Of a DNA stretch of 64,000 bases, positions 35,803-46,281 are shown one piece after another. The notes under the pieces are model-generated. The model searched no databases. It had not been told where the DNA came from and saw only the letters and a list, made by a program, of their open reading frames with translations. Position 1 is the stretch's first letter; every line of letters starts with the position of its first letter. A program made the position numbers and the translations under genes. Source of the stretch: an uncultured Erysipelotrichaceae bacterium. GTDB lineage: Bacteria > Bacillota_I > Bacilli_A > Erysipelotrichales > Erysipelotrichaceae. The stretch covers positions 1-64,000 of the forward strand of contig CAMCRE010000003.1 of the NCBI GenBank assembly GCA_945877255.1. The letters run 5' to 3'.

Positions 35803-38800
35803 TTATTTTTTTGTTTTTCTTTTTCTTATCACCACAATAGCAGCTAAAGAAGCAACCAACATCACCATATATTTATTTGTGTTGTCATTCGTTTGAACGT
35901 TATCTTTTTTAGCTTGTTGTGCTAAAGTAATAATTGGTAATTCATGTTTCACTGATTTACCATTTTGACTGTAGTGATATACTAAGCCATATTTAGAGAA
36001 ATGCTCTACTGTTAAGTACGCTTTATCATCAATAACTTCAAATGGTACTTCAACTAATTCACCATTATCACTTACGTAATAAGCGTATGCGACATCTCTT
36101 CCTTCACGAATTGGTAAAACTAAACGTGCTTTTCCATTTTTAAATGGCACTTTTTCTAATGTTTTACTATTTACGAAAGAAATGTCATATAAATCAGAAT
36201 TTTCACTTGAAACAGTTGGAACTTCAATTAATTTTTCAACCATGATATGACTAAATTCTGGTAAATCACCTTCTGTAACTGTAACAGAAACACCACTTTC
36301 ATCATGTGTAAATGGCAATACTTCTTTACGTAATAATGCTTCTAATCTTTGACGGATTTCAGCTTCATATTCATTTACAACGTTTTGTTGTGATACTTTA
36401 TGTGTACGATCAATTTGTGCAATATAATCATTTACTACTGCAAAATTAGTGTAGTTGTTGCTGTTGTATTTTTCTGGAATACTGTTAATTAAAGCATCTA
36501 AAGCTGTATAATCTGCATCTTTTTCTACTAACGCACCAATTTGTGCTTCTAATTTTTTGTAGTTGATTTTCACATATCCTACTGTTTTATCTTCTTGAAT
36601 ACCAGCAGTAACATCATCGATTACTTTTTGTGATTCAGCAATTTTTGCAACTAATTGATTCACTGTTTCTTCAGTATAAATACCTTTATCAACTAAAGAT
36701 TGTGCATGTGCTACTAATTGACGGTATGGTTCTAATTCATAAATATCATCAGATAAGTATTGCCCATTTACTAATACTTCAATAATGTGGTTTTCATTAC
36801 CTGCTGTATTGTGAACTCCAATACCATATATTCTCACATAACGCGCTTTTGTAAGTTCTTGTGCTGTAAACACAACTTTACCTTCATTCGTTTCTGAATA
36901 TAAGTTTTCCGTTGGTAATTGTCCTAATTGGTGCACATCTTGTGATTTATCACTTGCAGAGTAGTACACTACTTTTTTCTCATTGAATGACGCATCATTT
37001 GACAATACAACCGCTGTATCATCATATGTTCTACGATCTACCCAGTAACGATATAATTTAATATTATCGATACGCGCTTCATCACCTAAATCAATTTGCA
37101 TGTATGAAGAAGCACGGTTCGTATCATTACCAAATACTGTATAACCATCTTGTCCATTAAATCTACCATCTACAGCAACACTCAATGCACGATCACTTGG
37201 TGTAACAGATGCTGTCGCACTGCCTGTCCAATTTGCAGTCACATCTTGATGTAACGCAATATTTACACTTGTTTTTGGAACTAATTTCAAGTAAGCATCA
37301 TATAATTGAACATATTTCGCATCTTGTGCAGCGTAATCCGTACCTGCAATAATTGGTTTTGCTTCTCTAATTAATGTTTCTACGTTATTTGCGAATACAG
37401 ATTCTTCAGTATAACGTGGTAAGTTTAACTCTACTTTTTTAACTAATTCTGCTAATAATATTTGTGGTACTTCATCATATCCTAAACTGCGATCGTATAC
37501 CGCAACATCACGTACTTCAGCACCATTCATATTCACGATAATGTTATTTGCAGTTAATTTAAAGTCTTTGTTTTCTTTTTTGTATGCTGGTTTACTAATT
37601 TTACCATCAATATAGATTTTAATTAAACCATTGTTTTCTTTCACACCAGTAATAATTTGGTTATATCCTGCTACAACTGTTTCTTTCGCTGTTACAGTAA
37701 CGCCATTTAATGTGAAATATGGATGACCTTGTGTATCAATTCCTAATGCATAGTCTGTTCCTTGGTGCACTAATACCGTATTAGGTTGTCCGTTTTTAAC
37801 TGTTGCAGTTACCGCAAAACCATCTGAAGTTTGTAAGCTATCACGTGCATCTGTTAATAATGTATTATCGTTTTGAATTAATTCAATACTACGAATAATA
37901 CCATCTTTGTAATATGTTTTTTCTAATGGTGTCGTATTAATTTCGTTTCCAACGAAATCACTTCCTGCTGTTGCTACAACACGTACAACATCTGAATGTC
38001 TTAAAGCAGTTGTTAAGCGAACATCAAACGATTTTAAATCTGCTAATTTTGTAACTGTTTTTTCTACTGCCTCACCATTTACATATACTGTAAATTCTGC
38101 ATTTTTAACATGCTCTGAAGTTCTAATTTGAATGTTTTTGTTGTCTTTAAAGTATAATTTATCAACTGTTGGTGCAGTTACGTCTTGTTGTAAGTCTAAT
38201 GCCCAAACTTGTGTTTCACCTGGTTTTAATGTAATGGATACACGATCACCTTTTTGATATGTGCTATTGTGTGTAGCTAATTCCCCACTGTGTGTATAAC
38301 CACTTACTAATTTCACATAATATGTTCCTTCAGTGACAACACCAATTGCATCATTTAATGTAAATTCTAATGTTTTATCTACTGGTGCAGGGTTACGTAA
38401 TGAAATAATTCCACCTTCATTATCAAATCCTGAGAAACCATACGCTTCTTGGTTACCAGCACCACCTGTTACACCACCAGTTAATCCGGCTGTACTTGAT
38501 GGTGTGCCACCAATCATTTTTCCATTTCTTAATTTAGGGAAGTTCGCTTCTGCCCACTCTAAGAAATCAGCGTTAATTAAGTATTTTTCTTCATTTAAAA
38601 TTGAATCTGAATAGTATAATTCCCAGAATGCCGTTCCACGTGTTCCTTGCATAAACATGTAGTTTCTGAATTGATCACCATTCATTGAATTAGCACTAAT
38701 TCCAGTACCTTCTTTTCCATAAATTGGATCATGATTATAAATATTCGCTAATGGGAATTGGAATTGATGATTCACCACAAAGTCATAATACGTTCCATCA

Positions 38801-41523
38801 CGGTAAGTCATCATGCTATCCATTTTGTTGTTTAATGTTGAGTTGCTGTTTGTACGTTCTCCTCTATCGGCAACACATTGAATCCATACTGAGTTTGCCC
38901 ATTGTAAGTACCAAGGACTTGGGTTAACGTAGCAAGTTAATGAAATCCATAAATCGTGAATCCCTAAGCGTTTAGCTTCCGCTCTTGTGTTTTTCATCAA
39001 CACAATCCATTTTTCCCATAAATCAGTTGAATGATAGAAACCGTTTTTACCACCATACATGTGATGGTTTGTTTCACTGTATCCTACTACATTTTCACCA
39101 GATTGGAATGCTGAATATTGTGCTAAGTCCGCAAATCCATCCCATTTCCAGTAATTTACTTTGTAGTTACGCATCCAATCAATAACCATTTCTTCAAATT
39201 TTCTTACATAACGAGAATCTGCAACGTCAATTGAGCGACCTGCAATACTTCCATTACCTGCATTACTAATAATTTGTGCTAAGTCGTATTGATAGTTATA
39301 TCCGCCACGTGGACCAATCCATACCCCAAACTTAGAACCAAAGTTTTGGACTAATTCACTTGAAGGTGTTAATTGATTTGGGAATTTAGAGTTGAATTGC
39401 CAGAATCCAGCCGTATTAACGTCTACTTCTCCATTTCTTCTAATATCATCTCTTCGTGTTAATTCACCTGCACGTTTACGATAAATATTCCATCCATCAT
39501 CAACTACATAAGAATCTAGCGGTCTAACACCTGTTTTAGATAAGTTTTTATCTACTGCTGAGAATGATTCTAAAATATTATTGTCATCAATAAACATCAT
39601 ATTATCAAACCAAGAATTGTATTGAATTCTAAAGTCTGATGGTGTTGCAATACTGTAAATATATTTATAGAAATCAGATTGAATAACTTGATTGTTGCTT
39701 CCATCATTTTTAGAAGCACCTAAAACTGTTTGCCATGAAATATATTTTCCATCTGTTGTTAATTGTCCGTCACGTTGGAAATCAGTAAAGTTTTTTCCAG
39801 TGAAATAACGAATTCTTCCTAAATTATTTTCAATTTGCGTATCAGTAGCTGGGAACTCACTTCCTAAGAACATCCCGTTAATATAAATTGGTTGTCCTAA
39901 GTTAGCTTTTGCCACATCCATTTGCACAACGCCACCTTTATTAGTTGGAATTGTCCATTGACGATCATTACTTGATAACACTAAATGTTCACCATCAATG
40001 TATTCAAAACGAGCTGTCTTATCCGTTGCATCAATTTCTAAAAACTTACGCATAAAGTGATCGCCGTTATACATTACTACTTTTTGTTTAACGTGAATTT
40101 CACCTTGTCCAAATGATACTGGATTAAACGTAAACGTTACTAATTTTCCTGTTTTTTCAACGCCATTAATTGTAGTTGTAGTATTTTCTATCGTAGGTTC
40201 ACCATTTAATTCTAGTTGTGATCCAGAAATTGTTGCTGCTGGATGATAAATATTAGAATCAAATTTTTCAGTGAATAAATCAATTTCTGATGCAGCCGTA
40301 ACGTTTGCGTTAGATGAAACAACTTCAAATCCAACATAACGCTCAGATTGTGGTGCATCTAATGAACTATACACAAATCCTGGACGACGAACTGTATACA
40401 CGCCATTATAATCAATATTCATTTCTTTTTTGAAATTTTCAGCATTAAATAATGTGTCTCTATTATCAGAAACATAAACTTTATATTTTTGAACGTTTCC
40501 ATTAGAAGATGCACTACCAGGACGTGGTGCATATCCAATTGTTTGGAACGGAGCAGTTGCATAGCTATTTCCACGATCTAATGTAATTCTAACGTTCGCA
40601 GGGTTTTGTTCTCCTTCTCCATTTGCATTATAACGAGAATGATAGTAAGTATTCATATCACCATCAACTAATGCGTTATAACCGCCTCCATCATTCGTTT
40701 GAACACTATTTCCAGTTACTGACCATAATCTAGCTGGATCACGTCTTACAATAACACTTGTTCCTTCTTCATTGAATACATCAATTTCAGCAGCATTCAT
40801 ATATTTATTGTGTTTTTGTGCATCCCACATATGTGATTCTACTGCTGTTAATTTAATCGCAGTTGTTGTAACCGTAGAATTTAACACAATATCTTCTGGA
40901 TGGGCATTTCTACCAGATTGTGCGAATGTACCTTCTTGAGCTAATGTCCAACTTTCAGTTTCAGCGTTTAAGTATTCAACACGCCATTTTTTCATTCTTC
41001 CTGTCGCATCATATCCAACAGATGAATGAATTCTTGGTGTATATTTAATTTTTTTAACCGTTGTTTCAGCATCAAAATTAATAACAACATGTGCTGTTCC
41101 TGCTTGTTGCTCATTACTTTGCCAGTGTGTATTCACATTACCATCAGTCAATAATGCAATACTTCCTTCACTAGTAGAAGATACCGTAAAACGTGTTTCA
41201 TTTGGTGTTGTTGGTTTAACACTCGTTAATGGTTGAGTCGGGTTCGTACGCCCAGTTACGTTACGAATACCTTTAATGACGAACTCTTGCGAACCTTCTT
41301 GAGGAATTAGCTCAACCCCCCCCCACAAGTTTTGCACTTTTACAGTTTTCAAACGATTATTTTCTAATGAAAACTCACGAACTAATGCACTGTTACCAAT
41401 TTTTAACTTGCCGTCAGCTTTAGTCGCAAACACTTCATCACTACTCGCTTGCACATGAATGTTTCCAATTACAGACGTTAATAGAAACGCTGTAAGAATA
41501 GATTTTTTGACTTTGTGCTTCAT
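35803..41523 (-). CDS. Giant cell-wall-anchored clan GH-D (GH36-like) glycosidase
   Basis: This 1906-residue surface protein has a signal peptide (1-27), two N-terminal F5/8C (discoidin) modules with VNTHWQS and MNTYYHSR, and a glycosidase core. The core shows VVDDGW near residue 674, the candidate nucleophile Asp in YWKWDGF near 793 and a candidate acid/base Asp in CVADRGE near 884. This resembles GH36 alpha-galactosidase/alpha-N-acetylgalactosaminidase. A LamG-like module (about 1240-1380), a third discoidin module (about 1423-1570) and helical linkers follow. The end NVQTND, a hydrophobic segment and RKRKTKK form a variant sorting signal. It probably removes alpha-linked sugars from host glycans. 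A G9 tract interrupts codon 67. Family assignment needs a profile search. Confidence 0.75.
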   Translation of the reverse strand: MKHKVKKSILTAFLLTSVIGNIHVQASSDEVFATKADGKLKIGNSALVREFSLENNRLKTVKVQNLWGGVELIPQEGSQEFVIKGIRNVTGRTNPTQPLTSVKPTTPNETRFTVSSTSEGSIALLTDGNVNTHWQSNEQQAGTAHVVINFDAETTVKKIKYTPRIHSSVGYDATGRMKKWRVEYLNAETESWTLAQEGTFAQSGRNAHPEDIVLNSTVTTTAIKLTAVESHMWDAQKHNKYMNAAEIDVFNEEGTSVIVRRDPARLWSVTGNSVQTNDGGGYNALVDGDMNTYYHSRYNANGEGEQNPANVRITLDRGNSYATAPFQTIGYAPRPGSASSNGNVQKYKVYVSDNRDTLFNAENFKKEMNIDYNGVYTVRRPGFVYSSLDAPQSERYVGFEVVSSNANVTAASEIDLFTEKFDSNIYHPAATISGSQLELNGEPTIENTTTTINGVEKTGKLVTFTFNPVSFGQGEIHVKQKVVMYNGDHFMRKFLEIDATDKTARFEYIDGEHLVLSSNDRQWTIPTNKGGVVQMDVAKANLGQPIYINGMFLGSEFPATDTQIENNLGRIRYFTGKNFTDFQRDGQLTTDGKYISWQTVLGASKNDGSNNQVIQSDFYKYIYSIATPSDFRIQYNSWFDNMMFIDDNNILESFSAVDKNLSKTGVRPLDSYVVDDGWNIYRKRAGELTRRDDIRRNGEVDVNTAGFWQFNSKFPNQLTPSSELVQNFGSKFGVWIGPRGGYNYQYDLAQIISNAGNGSIAGRSIDVADSRYVRKFEEMVIDWMRNYKVNYWKWDGFADLAQYSAFQSGENVVGYSETNHHMYGGKNGFYHSTDLWEKWIVLMKNTRAEAKRLGIHDLWISLTCYVNPSPWYLQWANSVWIQCVADRGERTNSNSTLNNKMDSMMTYRDGTYYDFVVNHQFQFPLANIYNHDPIYGKEGTGISANSMNGDQFRNYMFMQGTRGTAFWELYYSDSILNEEKYLINADFLEWAEANFPKLRNGKMIGGTPSSTAGLTGGVTGGAGNQEAYGFSGFDNEGGIISLRNPAPVDKTLEFTLNDAIGVVTEGTYYVKLVSGYTHSGELATHNSTYQKGDRVSITLKPGETQVWALDLQQDVTAPTVDKLYFKDNKNIQIRTSEHVKNAEFTVYVNGEAVEKTVTKLADLKSFDVRLTTALRHSDVVRVVATAGSDFVGNEINTTPLEKTYYKDGIIRSIELIQNDNTLLTDARDSLQTSDGFAVTATVKNGQPNTVLVHQGTDYALGIDTQGHPYFTLNGVTVTAKETVVAGYNQIITGVKENNGLIKIYIDGKISKPAYKKENKDFKLTANNIIVNMNGAEVRDVAVYDRSLGYDEVPQILLAELVKKVELNLPRYTEESVFANNVETLIREAKPIIAGTDYAAQDAKYVQLYDAYLKLVPKTSVNIALHQDVTANWTGSATASVTPSDRALSVAVDGRFNGQDGYTVFGNDTNRASSYMQIDLGDEARIDNIKLYRYWVDRRTYDDTAVVLSNDASFNEKKVVYYSASDKSQDVHQLGQLPTENLYSETNEGKVVFTAQELTKARYVRIYGIGVHNTAGNENHIIEVLVNGQYLSDDIYELEPYRQLVAHAQSLVDKGIYTEETVNQLVAKIAESQKVIDDVTAGIQEDKTVGYVKINYKKLEAQIGALVEKDADYTALDALINSIPEKYNSNNYTNFAVVNDYIAQIDRTHKVSQQNVVNEYEAEIRQRLEALLRKEVLPFTHDESGVSVTVTEGDLPEFSHIMVEKLIEVPTVSSENSDLYDISFVNSKTLEKVPFKNGKARLVLPIREGRDVAYAYYVSDNGELVEVPFEVIDDKAYLTVEHFSKYGLVYHYSQNGKSVKHELPIITLAQQAKKDNVQTNDNTNKYMVMLVASLAAIVVIRKRKTKK
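41316..41324 (-). repeat. G9 homopolymer tract in the glycosidase coding sequence
   Basis: Nine consecutive C on the plus strand (G on the coding strand) encode the end of Trp, two Gly and the start of Val (LWGGVEL). Gain or loss of one base would shift the frame at about codon 67 of 1906. The length shown is the in-frame (on) state. Confidence 0.95.
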
Positions 41524-41648: not shown

Positions 41649-41676
41649 TAAAAACAGCAGTAACCCACTGCTGTTT
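41649..41676 (-). terminator. Terminator after the ABC permease gene
   Basis: Ten-base arms AAACAGCAGT/ACTGCTGTTT with loop AACCC are followed by TTATTTT on the minus strand and overlap the permease stop codon. Confidence 0.82.
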
Positions 41677-43324
41677 AAATATTCATCTCTTTTCCTTTTG
41701 AAACTTTCAAGAATACGATTAATGAAATCGTTGTAATGACTGTTAATATACCTGATAATGCCGCCGCAATACCATAATTACCGCGAATAACTTCAGTATA
41801 CATCGCAACTGTTAAAGTTTGCGTTTTAGCAGTATATAAGATTACTGCTGTAGAAAGTTCAGAAATCATTGTAATCCAACTTAAAATTGCACCCGCAATA
41901 ATTCCAGTTTTCATCATTGGCATCGTAATCGTGACGAAAGTTTTAATTTTACTTGCACCAAGTGAAGAAGCCGCTTCTTCCATACTCATTGGTATTTGTT
42001 GGAGGGTGGCAGCACTTGAACGTATCGTATATGGTAAACGACGTATTACAAGTGATACAACCATAATCAACATCGTTCCACTTAATAATAATGGTTTTTT
42101 ATTAAATGAAACTAACAATGCAATCCCCACTACTGTTCCTGGTACGATATATGGAATCATCGAAACGATGTCAATTCCACTTGAAAGTGCATTTCTTCTG
42201 CGTACTGTAATATAGGCAATTACCACTGATAACACAACAATAATCACTAATGCTACTAATGGAATTAACACTGTATTTAATAATGTTCCACCTAATTTAG
42301 TAAACGCAATTTCATACGATTTTAAAGAATACCCTGGTTGAAATACCATTCCTTGCGTTTTCAAGAATGACGTATACAACACATAAATTTGTGGTAAGAT
42401 AGCTAATCCAACTATTGCGTATGAGAAAACATATACCATCACTTTTTTTAATCCTTTAATAGATTTTTCTTTCATTGGATGTAATGCACTCATTGAAAAA
42501 GCATATTTATTAGAAAGATGTTTTTGAATTAAGAAGAATACTGTTGTAATCACAATCGCAATCATCGCAATTGCACTCGCAAAACCATCATTTCCTCCTA
42601 CCTCATTAATAAACTCTTCAAAAATTAATACTGGGAATGTACGATAACCCTCCCCTATTAACATCGGTGTACCAAAATCTGCTAATGCACGCATAAATAC
42701 GAGTAAAGCACCAGCTAAAATAGTTGGCATAATTAATGGAATAATTACTTTGAAAAAGCGTTTTATTCCTTTAACGCCCATGTTTTCACTCGCTTCTAAC
42801 AATGAATTATCTACGTTTTTCAATGCACCTTCCACATATAAGAAAATAAGTGGGAATAATTGCAACGTAAACACAAGCATAATACCTTTAAAACCATAAA
42901 TATCAATTGAAAACTGTGGAATAACACTCGCCACAAATTTTGTGAGGACACCATTTCTTCCAAGTAATAAAATCCATGAATACGCTCCGATAAATGGTGC
43001 CGACATTGATGATAAAATAATTAAAATACGTAATAACGCTTTTCCTTTAATTTTATATGCTTGAAAACAATATGCTAACGGTATTCCAACTACTAATGAA
43101 GTAATCGTTGCAAGTATTGAAACAATAAAACTGTTTCTTAATGTAGAAATATAATAGCCTTCTGAAAAGAATTTACTAAAATGTTCGAACGTAATGGAAC
43201 GTGTTTCCGGATGAATTAATGCTTTAAATAATAATATTAATAACGGATAAATTAAAAATAAAATATAGGTAAAAGCAATACCAAGAGAAATAATAATCCA
43301 AATATCAAGACGCTTTTTTCTCAT
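41675..43324 (-). CDS. ABC transporter permease (FbpB/AfuB type)
   Basis: This 549-residue protein is a fused double permease with about 12 membrane segments. Each half has an EAA loop: EASENMGVKGIKRFFKVIIPLIMP and EAASSLGASKIKTFVTITMPMM. Such two-domain permeases serve ferric iron, thiamine, phosphonate or hexose-phosphate importers with one binding protein and one ATPase. Its ATG overlaps the end of the ATPase gene by 20 bases, so all three are one operon. Confidence 0.9.
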   Translation of the reverse strand: MRKKRLDIWIIISLGIAFTYILFLIYPLLILLFKALIHPETRSITFEHFSKFFSEGYYISTLRNSFIVSILATITSLVVGIPLAYCFQAYKIKGKALLRILIILSSMSAPFIGAYSWILLLGRNGVLTKFVASVIPQFSIDIYGFKGIMLVFTLQLFPLIFLYVEGALKNVDNSLLEASENMGVKGIKRFFKVIIPLIMPTILAGALLVFMRALADFGTPMLIGEGYRTFPVLIFEEFINEVGGNDGFASAIAMIAIVITTVFFLIQKHLSNKYAFSMSALHPMKEKSIKGLKKVMVYVFSYAIVGLAILPQIYVLYTSFLKTQGMVFQPGYSLKSYEIAFTKLGGTLLNTVLIPLVALVIIVVLSVVIAYITVRRRNALSSGIDIVSMIPYIVPGTVVGIALLVSFNKKPLLLSGTMLIMVVSLVIRRLPYTIRSSAATLQQIPMSMEEAASSLGASKIKTFVTITMPMMKTGIIAGAILSWITMISELSTAVILYTAKTQTLTVAMYTEVIRGNYGIAAALSGILTVITTISLIVFLKVSKGKEMNI

Positions 43325-44378
43325 ATTGTGCTACTAAGTTTACAAGTCCAGCTTCATCAAATACATTAATTTTATCTTTTTTAATATCTAGGTAAACTTC
43401 TTTACCATTTTCTAATAATTGTGTAATAGATGATTCTTCAATTACTTCTACTTTTTCCCCTGTCTCAATTTCTAAATAATAATGTGTATTTAAACCTAAA
43501 AACACACTATCCACAACTTTTGCTTTAATACCTGTTTTATCATTAATTAAAAACTCTTCTGGTCGAATAGAAAGTTTTACTTTTTGTGAATCAGTAACTG
43601 CATTAATCGCAAATTGGTAATTACCAATTTGAACATTTCCATCAACTACTTTTGCATCTATAATATTCGTACGGCCAATAAATGTCGCTACAAACACATT
43701 TGCAGGTCGTTGATAAATTTCTTTTGGTGTGCCTAAGTGCTGGATCACACCTTCTTTCATTACCGCAATAAAATCACTAATCGCCATTGCTTCTTCTTGA
43801 TCGTGTGTTACATAAACTGTTGTAATACCTACGTTTTTTTGGATATCACGAATTGCACTTCGCATATCAACACGTAATTTTGCATCTAAATTACTTAAAG
43901 GTTCATCCATCAATAACACTTTTGGTTCAATAACTAACGCACGTGCTAATGCAACACGTTGTTGCTGTCCTCCTGATAATTTATCTGGCATACGACTACG
44001 ATATTGATCAATTTGCATTAAAGCTAAAAAACGATTCGTTCTTTCTTGCATTTCTGCTTCAGATACTTTTCTTTGGCGTAATCCAAATTTTACGTTTTCT
44101 TCAACACTTAAATGTGGGAAAATTGCATAATTTTGAAACACCATACCAATATCACGTTTACTTGGATCTAAATCATTGATTCTAACGTCATCAAAATAAA
44201 AATCTCCACCTTCAATACTATTAAATCCGGCAATCATTCTTAATAACGTTGTTTTACCACATCCTGATGGTCCTAATAACGTAAATAAAGATCCTTCTGG
44301 AATATCTAACGATAATTTATCAATTATCGTTAGATTCCCATATTTTTTAACTGCATCTTTTATAATAATTTTACTCAT
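43305..44378 (-). CDS. ABC transporter ATP-binding protein (FbpC/PotA type)
   Basis: This 357-residue protein shows Walker A GPSGCGKTT, Q-loop FQNYAIFPH, signature LSGGQQQR, Walker B VLLMDEP and the switch His in YVTHDQEEA. A C-terminal regulatory OB-fold (TOBE-like, about 240-350) begins FIGRTNIIDAKV. It powers import through the neighbouring permease. It ends with TGA, one base beyond binding-protein spacing: the binding protein gene lies one base upstream. Confidence 0.95.
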   Translation of the reverse strand: MSKIIIKDAVKKYGNLTIIDKLSLDIPEGSLFTLLGPSGCGKTTLLRMIAGFNSIEGGDFYFDDVRINDLDPSKRDIGMVFQNYAIFPHLSVEENVKFGLRQRKVSEAEMQERTNRFLALMQIDQYRSRMPDKLSGGQQQRVALARALVIEPKVLLMDEPLSNLDAKLRVDMRSAIRDIQKNVGITTVYVTHDQEEAMAISDFIAVMKEGVIQHLGTPKEIYQRPANVFVATFIGRTNIIDAKVVDGNVQIGNYQFAINAVTDSQKVKLSIRPEEFLINDKTGIKAKVVDSVFLGLNTHYYLEIETGEKVEVIEESSITQLLENGKEVYLDIKKDKINVFDEAGLVNLVAQYEKKAS

Positions 44379-44379
44379 T

Positions 44380-45399
44380 TTATTTTCCTATTGAGATATA
44401 AATATTTTTATATTTTTCTACTAATTTTGCTTTATTCGCATGAACATAATCCATATCTTCTTCAATTACATTAATTTTGTCAAATGGTGTCATTTTGTTT
44501 GAAATTTTTGCATCTTTTAATACTGGTCTGTTAGTAGTTGAAGAACCTAAAGCATCTTGAACTTCTTTAGATAATAATAAATCAATGAATTTTTTAGCTA
44601 ATTCTTCGTTTTTAGCACCTTTCACAATTGCACTTGCTGCTGGTAAGTATACCGCACCTTCTTTTGGATATACTACTTGTACTGGTGCATTGTCATTCAT
44701 TAATTTTACTGCTGGGTCTTCGTATGTTAATCCTACAACCATTTCACCGTCAGCTACTGATTTATAAACTGCACTTGAACCTGATTTTAATTTACCATCA
44801 ATGTTTGTGTATAAATCTTTTACATATTTCCAAGCAGCATCACTTTCATATCCACCCATCGCTAACAACATATTCGTTAATTGTGCAAATGCACTTGAAG
44901 AGTTTGATGGATCAGCAGAAGCGATTTTTCCTTTTAATTTTGGATTTAATAAATCTGCATAACTATCGATTTTAATATCGCCAATTAAGTTTTTATTTAC
45001 TAATAAAACACTACCATCTAAAGCGTATGGTGTAATAAATCCTGTTTTGTTTTTGTATGCATCAATAACGTTTGCATCATTAGCAGATTTATATTCTAAG
45101 AATAAATCTTTGTTGTCTTTAATTGTTGCAAAACTTCCACCAAACATTACATCTGCATATGGTGCAGATTTCTCTGATTGTAATCTTTTGATTAATTGAC
45201 CTGTTCCTGCTTGAATTAACTCTACTTTTACGTTGTGTTTTTGTTCAAACAACGGAACAATTGCATTAATTAATCCTTCACTATTTGGTGAATATACAAC
45301 TAATGTTTTTTGTTGTGTACTTGTTTTTTCACTTGCATTACAAGCTACTAATGTAATCATTGCACAGCATGCAACTAATGTTTTAATAATTTTACGCAT
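44380..45399 (-). CDS. ABC importer substrate-binding lipoprotein (AfuA/FbpA-like)
   Basis: This 339-residue protein has a lipobox LVAC with Cys20, so it is membrane-tethered outside the cell. The mature part starts KTLVVYSPNSEGLINAIVPLFEQKHNVKVELIQAGTGQL, typical of the ferric/thiamine/phosphate-ester binding group. The region SSAVYKSVADGEMVVGLTYED lacks the adjacent Tyr pair used by FbpA to hold iron. It looks more like hexose-phosphate (AfuA) or phosphonate binders. The ligand is therefore inferred only. AAAGGAGG precedes the start. Confidence 0.82.
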   Translation of the reverse strand: MRKIIKTLVACCAMITLVACNASEKTSTQQKTLVVYSPNSEGLINAIVPLFEQKHNVKVELIQAGTGQLIKRLQSEKSAPYADVMFGGSFATIKDNKDLFLEYKSANDANVIDAYKNKTGFITPYALDGSVLLVNKNLIGDIKIDSYADLLNPKLKGKIASADPSNSSSAFAQLTNMLLAMGGYESDAAWKYVKDLYTNIDGKLKSGSSAVYKSVADGEMVVGLTYEDPAVKLMNDNAPVQVVYPKEGAVYLPAASAIVKGAKNEELAKKFIDLLLSKEVQDALGSSTTNRPVLKDAKISNKMTPFDKINVIEEDMDYVHANKAKLVEKYKNIYISIGK

Positions 45400-45485
45400 A
45401 AATGCCTCCTTTATTTCATCTATACTATACCAAATTTTATAATTTTATGACACCTAAAAATCCGTAATTTTGGATAAAATCCCGT

Positions 45486-45512
45486 AAAAAAAGATAAAGC
45501 AATCGCTTTATC
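45486..45512 (-). terminator. Terminator after the response-regulator gene
   Basis: Stem GATAAAGC/GCTTTATC (45493-45500 with 45505-45512) leads into TTTTTTT on the minus strand and overlaps the gene's stop codon. Confidence 0.82.
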
Positions 45513-46281
45513 CAATGTCTAATAACTTCATAAATTCTTTTGGTGCATAACCGATATATTTTTTAAAAACGATATTAAAATATTTGAAATCAATAAAGCC
45601 CGCTTTAAAACTTGCATCTTGTATACTTTCGCCTTTTTTAATCAAAACAATCACTTGTTGAATACGATAACGATTTAAATAATCATTAATTGTATGTCCA
45701 GTACTTTCTTTAAACCGCTTATTTAAGATTGATTCTGAATAGTGTAAATTTTCAACAAGTGTTTGCATCGTAATTTTTGAAGCATATTTTTGATGAATAA
45801 ATCCAATAACTTGTGTTGTGATAGAATCAAATCTTGTGGGGATACATTTCAATAAATTAATTTCTTGTGTATTTTTTTGAACTTGCAACATTTCTTGATA
45901 ATATGCTTTTTCTTTGACTTGTTGAATAGCTTTAACAACGGCGTTTTTTAATTCATTTTCATCAATTGGCTTTAAAATATATTCACATACACCATAATGA
46001 ATTGATTGTTTCATATAATCAACATCTGCATATCCTGTTGTTATAATTGCACTATAGACGTAATCACTCATACTTTGATCAATCATTTTTAAGCCATCCA
46101 TTTTTGGCATATTAATATCAGTAATCACAATATCTGGTTGGTACGTTTTAATTTTTTCTAATCCATCTATACCATCCACTGCACTTGCAACGATGATACA
46201 TTCTAATTCATGCCAGTCTAATGCATATTTTAATCCTTCTCGTAACACAAATTCATCTTCAACAATGAGTACTTTATACAT
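45508..46281 (-). CDS. YesN-type response regulator with AraC DNA-binding domain
   Basis: This 257-residue protein has a receiver domain with phospho-acceptor D55 (DIVITDINMPKMDG) and an acidic pocket (VEDE). The C-terminal AraC/XylS double helix-turn-helix runs SKITMQTLVENLHYSESILNKRFKESTGHTINDYLNRYRI to the end. It overlaps the histidine kinase gene by eight bases. Its target is probably the adjacent ABC importer, 108 bases downstream. Confidence 0.93.
   Translation of the reverse strand: MYKVLIVEDEFVLREGLKYALDWHELECIIVASAVDGIDGLEKIKTYQPDIVITDINMPKMDGLKMIDQSMSDYVYSAIITTGYADVDYMKQSIHYGVCEYILKPIDENELKNAVVKAIQQVKEKAYYQEMLQVQKNTQEINLLKCIPTRFDSITTQVIGFIHQKYASKITMQTLVENLHYSESILNKRFKESTGHTINDYLNRYRIQQVIVLIKKGESIQDASFKAGFIDFKYFNIVFKKYIGYAPKEFMKLLDIG

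What the first reader, a model, noticed from the sequence alone, without database searches (positions are those of the whole stretch)
41316..41324. G9 tract that could switch the giant glycosidase on and off
A run of nine G is very improbable by chance in this AT-rich DNA. It sits at codon 67 of a 1906-codon surface protein, so slippage would truncate it. This is the layout of phase-variable contingency loci, uncommon in this group.
Basis: partly seen in the sequence, partly recalled or inferred. Interest (0 to 1): 0.75.

Follow-up and report, generated by a model that had tools for sequence, protein, structure and literature searches.

The report
Possible slippage switch in surface glycosidase
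A run of nine Gs near the start of a huge cell-surface sugar-cutting enzyme gene would switch the enzyme off whenever copying errors change its length by one or two bases, and similar G-run switches turn out to be common in related bacteria, although length change at this exact spot was not observed.

Summary
The tract is real: C9 on the + strand at 41316-41324 (G9 in the gene), codons 67-70 of a 1906-aa secreted, GH36-like surface glycosidase. Lengths 7, 8, 10 or 11 would all end the protein at 69-72 aa. The gene is intact (ON) in this assembly. The tract is unlikely by chance (0.001-0.03 expected per window). It is not forced by a conserved peptide: all 15 homologues lack it, and the Gly-Gly pair it encodes uses GGG twice although GGG makes up only 7% of Gly codons. 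The same 1.26-Mb genome has two other G9 tracts, one filling the 17-bp spacer of a promoter for another giant secreted protein and one in a ribosome-binding site, plus a C8 at the exact point where a prophage methyltransferase is frameshifted. In the family and class, poly-G promoter tracts are abundant (reversed control: zero). Homologous tracts there differ in length: G10, G11 and G13 in one prophage gene (ON/OFF/ON), and G9/G10 in a multi-copy promoter family. Length polymorphism at the window tract itself could not be tested. Best reading: a translational ON/OFF contingency locus, a new member of a known kind (about 0.62). The wider promoter-type repertoire in this class is the more surprising result.

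The parts
41316..41324 (-). G9 tract, codons 67-70 (TGG GGG GGG GTT); candidate slippage switch
   Evidence: lengths 7, 8, 10 and 11 give 69-72 aa products
35803..41523 (-). 1906-aa secreted, cell-surface GH36-like glycosidase gene, intact (ON) in this assembly
41443..41523 (-). N-terminal signal-peptide-like segment (residues 1 to about 27), upstream of the tract and so kept in any truncated product
   Evidence: sequence; inference from composition
40786..41184 (-). F5/8 type C carbohydrate-binding module (residues 114-246), inserted after the first part of the N-terminal beta domain
   Evidence: Pfam PF00754, E 7e-22
40453..40686 (-). second discoidin-like module (residues 280-357), like CBM32 of Clostridium glycosidases
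   Evidence: phmmer to 4a41, E 7.5e-5
38164..40266 (-). beta domain plus TIM barrel, GH36-like catalytic region (residues 420-1120); invariant YWKxDGF aspartate (residue 795) and invariant D886 are the candidate nucleophile and acid/base
   Evidence: alignment A1, AF2 model, Foldseek to GH36, profile hit to 2xn0, E 0.0015; catalytic roles inferred
35806..35898 (-). C-terminal sorting-like tail VQTNDN...hydrophobic...RKRKTKK (residues 1876-1906)
   Evidence: sequence; similar C termini elsewhere in the genome; anchoring inferred
41652..41676 (-). intrinsic terminator between the upstream ABC permease gene and the glycosidase gene, suggesting separate transcription

Best explanation
The G9 tract is a translational contingency switch. 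During replication the poly-G/poly-C run slips and gains or loses one base. Any change that is not a multiple of three moves the frame onto a stop within about five codons, leaving a 69-72 aa fragment (signal peptide plus the first strands) instead of the 1906-aa wall-associated GH36-like glycosidase. A later slip restores the frame. A population would then be a mix of enzyme-bearing (ON, as in this assembly) and enzyme-free cells. Shown: the tract, its frame, the truncation, the absence of sequence constraint at the site, and length variants with frame changes at homologous tracts in the same family. Inferred: that this tract slips often enough to matter, and that selection keeps it.
For: (1) Position: codon 67 of 1906 in an otherwise intact ORF; lengths 7, 8, 10 and 11 all truncate at 69-72 aa. 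(2) Not forced by the protein: 15 homologues show a variable loop here and none encodes W-G-G; given Gly-Gly, two GGG codons have probability about 0.005, and this is the only GGG-GGG among 45 Gly-Gly pairs in 26 window genes. (3) Rarity: 0.02-0.5 runs of G9 or longer expected in the genome, 3 observed. (4) All three G9 tracts lie where length matters for expression: this one; C15:13838, which with C and TATATTG makes the 17-bp spacer TTGTCT-17-TATAAT upstream of an 1836-aa secreted protein; and C11:16379, an SD-like G9 six bases before an ATG. The shorter G7 runs sit mostly inside ordinary genes. (5) A C8 in the same genome sits exactly where a prophage DNA methyltransferase goes out of frame; all 22 relatives are open at this site without such a run, apart from a stop 20 codons upstream in L170. 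(6) Same family: one prophage gene carries G10 (open), G11 (stop after 13 aa) and G13 (open) at the same codon in different records. (7) Promoter-type tracts in the class: many copies, zero reversed controls, spacers only 17-19 bp, and G9 versus G10 between near-identical promoters of one genome. (8) Precedents: C8/C7 in Streptococcus pyogenes mga (PMC10330708) and intragenic G-tracts in Bifidobacterium breve pilus genes (PMC9187656).
Against: No length variant of this tract was seen. Nine bases is at the short end for efficient poly-G switches. The genome encodes a full-length MutS, so slippage may be repaired well. Homologues in other genera lack the tract, so there is no evolutionary conservation of the switch. 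Under the least favourable Markov model three G9 runs in the genome have P 0.016. Immediate stops in both shifted frames occur at 15% of codons of this gene, so that feature is weak evidence.
Confidence: 0.62

Rival explanations
1. Chance run: two GGG codons after TGG and before GTT arose by drift in a variable loop. The tract mutates slightly faster than average but has no selected function.
For: Under the order-3 Markov model about 0.5 G9 runs are expected per genome. The tract is absent from all homologues. No length variant was seen. Nine G7 runs occur, mostly inside ordinary genes.
Against: Three G9 runs in the genome, all at expression-controlling positions. GGG is only 7% of Gly codons. 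The family shows clear cases of functional poly-G.
Confidence: 0.28
2. Slow genetic toggle or decay site: the tract slips rarely and acts as a mutational hot spot where the costly enzyme is lost and occasionally regained, as described for C8/C7 in streptococcal mga, without being kept as a bet-hedging device.
For: Short tract and a full-length MutS gene; the C8-broken prophage methyltransferase in the same genome; the mga precedent, in which the OFF form arises in culture and reverts in animals (PMC10330708).
Against: The codon choice that makes the tract, and the promoter G9 of a second giant surface protein, look more like maintained switches.
Confidence: 0.08
3. Transcriptional slippage: RNA polymerase stutters on G9 and lowers full-length output or makes a short secreted N-terminal peptide at a fixed ratio.
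For: Homopolymers of nine or more can cause RNA polymerase slippage (general knowledge; no tool result here).
Against: The 0 frame already encodes the full protein, so slippage would only reduce yield. The 69-72 aa products hold no complete domain.
Confidence: 0.02

Closest known systems
Intragenic G-tracts in sortase-dependent pilus genes of Bifidobacterium breve UCC2003 (PMC9187656)
   Same: Intragenic poly-G in a surface-structure gene of a Gram-positive gut bacterium; frame decides ON or OFF
   Different: Different phylum; tracts G10-G11; length variation there was measured by deep sequencing, here it was not
C8 tract of mga in Streptococcus pyogenes (PMC10330708)
   Same: Bacillota; short homopolymer of 8; a one-base change shifts the frame and revertants are found
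   Different: That tract is in a regulator near the 3' end of the gene; here it is near the 5' end of the surface enzyme itself
Neisseria meningitidis hmbR/hpuA intragenic poly-G (PMC3786947) and porA promoter poly-G (PMC3639595)
   Same: Two layouts, frame tract and promoter tract, corresponding to the window tract and the C15 tract of this genome
   Different: Gram-negative pathogen with usually longer tracts and proven length variation
GH36 alpha-galactosidases and the Flavonifractor A-type GalN-galactosaminidase (9awt)
   Same: Predicted fold of the catalytic region, with candidate catalytic aspartates invariant
   Different: Only about 11% identity, multi-modular 1906-aa wall-associated form, substrate unknown

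Membership tests
Simple-sequence contingency locus (translational phase variation) | Mononucleotide tract within the ORF, near the 5' end | tested here: met
   G9 at codons 67-70 of 1906
Simple-sequence contingency locus (translational phase variation) | Unit changes truncate the product | tested here: met
   69-72 aa at tract lengths 7, 8, 10 and 11
Simple-sequence contingency locus (translational phase variation) | Tract longer than expected by chance | tested here: met
   0.001-0.026 expected per window; 3 observed versus 0.02-0.5 expected in the genome
Simple-sequence contingency locus (translational phase variation) | Tract length polymorphic between cells or strains | not testable with these tools
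   no same-genus genome or reads held; seen only at other tracts in the family and class
Simple-sequence contingency locus (translational phase variation) | Expression toggles reversibly | not testable with these tools
   needs an experiment
Simple-sequence contingency locus (translational phase variation) | Gene product interacts with host, phage or environment | tested here: inconclusive
   signal peptide, F5/8C modules, GH36-like catalytic fold and C-terminal anchor-like tail point to a surface enzyme; location and target are inferred, not shown
Glycoside hydrolase family 36 | GH36 fold (beta-supersandwich, TIM barrel, C-terminal beta domain) and two catalytic Asp | tested here: inconclusive
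   Foldseek best hits are GH36 (E 1e-16, TM about 0.5), but sequence identity is 11% and no Pfam GH model matches

The most novel reading that the evidence does not exclude
This gene is one locus of an unrecognised poly-G phase-variation repertoire that runs through a whole class of mostly small-genome Bacillota. It would comprise intragenic tracts in surface enzymes and prophage genes, and a stereotyped poly-G promoter (TTGACA, 17-19 bp spacer filled by G8-G11, TAnnAT) that drives multi-copy secreted-protein families, up to 13 copies in a 1.0-Mb genome.
Probability: 0.5. Interest if true: 0.72.

Novelty: new member of a known kind. Interest (0 to 1): 0.55.

Why it matters
If the tract switches, a large glycan-active enzyme is present on only part of the population, which would change how host or dietary sugars are harvested and how immune cells and phages see the cell. 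A 2025 review (PMC11868660) notes that multi-locus phase-variable genomes seem restricted to pathogens, perhaps through sampling bias. The poly-G promoters found here across related genomes make that question directly testable with existing metagenome reads.

Tried and rejected
Search for host-like copies of the gene in viral contigs: none. Search of genome contigs for close strains: only homologues at 39-56% identity in other genera. Two poly-G promoter flanks searched in viral contigs: no match; a third, prophage flank gave three informative records. Constraint by a conserved W-G-G peptide: rejected. Loss of mismatch repair as the cause: rejected, a full-length MutS is present. The idea that the genome avoids all long homopolymers: A/T runs of 9 or more are absent from this window but occur elsewhere in the genome, so no claim is made. 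One G8/C8 run is simply the acceptor stem of tRNA-Tyr. Pfam and NCBIfam gave no catalytic family for the protein; only fold comparison did. Organism: not established; YSIRK and DUF1542 proteins and the small-genome classmates suggest a Bacilli-class host-associated bacterium (inference).

Full report
Observation. The window holds C9 on the + strand at 41316-41324, that is G9 in the gene on the - strand. The gene is an intact ORF of 1906 aa, 35803-41523(-); the tract covers the end of codon 67 to the start of codon 70 (TGG GGG GGG GTT, W-G-G-V). No other G/C run in the 64 kb exceeds six. Markov models fitted to the rest of the window predict 0.001-0.026 runs of nine or more per window. If the tract had 7, 8, 10 or 11 bases the reading frame would end at 69, 71, 70 or 72 aa.

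The protein. Residues 1 to about 27 look like a signal peptide. Residues 114-246 match the F5/8 type C module (PF00754) and residues 280-357 resemble discoidin-type carbohydrate-binding modules of Clostridium glycosidases. Residues 420-1120, aligned with 14 homologues at 39-73% identity and modelled by AlphaFold2 at mean pLDDT 79.6, best match GH36 alpha-galactosidases and the A-type GalN-galactosaminidase of Flavonifractor (E about 1e-16 and 1e-13); a profile search also reaches GH36 weakly. The C terminus (VQTNDN, hydrophobic stretch, RKRK) looks like a wall-sorting tail. So 'giant surface glycosidase' is a fair label, GH36-like by fold; substrate unknown. A terminator separates it from the ABC-transporter gene upstream.

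Is the tract forced by the protein? No. In 15 homologues from Collinsella, Bifidobacterium, Lachnospiraceae-labelled MAGs and the same family and order, this position is a variable loop and none has W-G-G. GGG makes up 7% of glycine codons in 26 genes of the window; of 45 Gly-Gly pairs, this is the only GGG-GGG. The tract therefore arose in this lineage at a site free to vary.

The rest of the genome. The genome (1.26 Mb, about 30% G+C in the 144 kb examined) has six runs of eight or more G/C, three of them nine long. The three G9 runs are: this one; one filling the spacer of TTGTCT-17-TATAAT in front of an 1836-aa secreted protein; and one serving as the Shine-Dalgarno-like stretch six bases before the ATG of a 102-aa membrane protein. 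One C8 lies at the exact point where a prophage DNA methyltransferase loses its frame; 22 relatives in viral contigs are open across this site, where they encode P-x-P with mixed codons and no such run (one, L170, has a stop 20 codons upstream). One G8 is in a prophage near a terminase gene, and one is the acceptor stem of tRNA-Tyr. Runs of seven sit mostly inside ordinary genes. Expected numbers of G9 are 0.02-0.5, so three is an excess with P between 1e-6 and 0.016. A full-length MutS gene is present.

Relatives. Of 60 genomes in the same family and order, 26 have runs of G9 or longer. In 43 such tracts examined, 22 are followed by TA, against 35 of 318 short G runs (P 5e-9), and 12 have both -35-like and -10-like elements, against 11 of 318. 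The pattern TTGACA-N6-11-G8-TA occurs in 7 of 98 relatives, 17 of 265 genomes of the order and 29 of 392 of a phylum sample; the reversed control never occurs. In the sites examined the spacer is only 17, 18 or 19 bp, and many downstream genes encode secreted or surface proteins. One 1.0-Mb genome has 13 copies with near-identical promoters that differ by G9 versus G10. In one same-family prophage gene the tract at codons 9-12 is G10 (519-aa ORF), G11 (13-aa ORF) and G13 (open) in different records. Poly-G tracts in this group therefore do change length, and they sit where length matters.

Mechanism. The simplest account is slippage-driven translational phase variation of the glycosidase. Shown: anatomy, consequences, rarity, absence of protein constraint, and length change at homologous tracts of relatives. 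Inferred: slippage of this tract at a useful rate, and selection for heterogeneity. Not tested: length polymorphism of this tract, because no second genome of the genus and no reads are held. G9 is at the short end for such switches, but C8 in mga of Streptococcus pyogenes is a working example in the Bacillota (PMC10330708), and intragenic G-tracts control pilus genes in Bifidobacterium breve (PMC9187656).

Verdict. Its interpretation is plausible and better supported than a lone tract would be, but unproven. The claim that such loci are uncommon in this group is contradicted. The locus itself is a new member of a known kind. The class-wide poly-G promoter repertoire is the more surprising lead; no description of it appeared among the listed results of nine searches of an open-access library, which does not exclude one in subscription journals.

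Noticed in passing
G000:C15:13838-13846 (L050:8039-8047): G9 inside the 17-bp spacer of a TTGTCT/TATAAT promoter upstream of an 1836-aa secreted protein: candidate promoter-type phase switch.
   Followed up: partly
G000:C11:16379-16387 (L048:7980-7988): G9 as the Shine-Dalgarno-like stretch six bases before the ATG of a 102-aa membrane protein without a Pfam match.
   Followed up: partly
G000:C4:30681-30688 (L047:7982-7989): Prophage DNA methyltransferase out of frame exactly at a C8 run; 22 viral relatives are open across this site and lack the run (one, L170, has a stop 20 codons upstream).
   Followed up: yes
G549, loci L192-L200: 13 poly-G promoters (TTGACAAAACGCTCT-G9/G10-TAGAAT and close variants) in a 1.0-Mb genome, most of those read in front of paralogous secreted proteins (MKKIVKK...TVTYGAENIL).
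   Followed up: partly
L140, L142, L143 (G024) and viral contigs L177-L179: Prophage gene with a 5' poly-G tract of 10, 11 or 13 in different copies, open or closed accordingly; no Pfam or PHROG match.
   Followed up: partly
L105:4708, 8357, 10024 and L108:3012 (G051): Poly-C upstream of paralogous tail-like genes; two copies share a 22-base flank but carry 9 and 11 bases.
   Followed up: no
G002, L134-L138: Four dispersed TTGACA...GTC-G10/11-TA promoters in a genome where the MutS_V family finds only one weaker match, perhaps MutS2 only.
   Followed up: no
window 41675-46281: Phosphonate/iron-type ABC transporter genes and an AraC-type response regulator next to the glycosidase gene.
   Followed up: no
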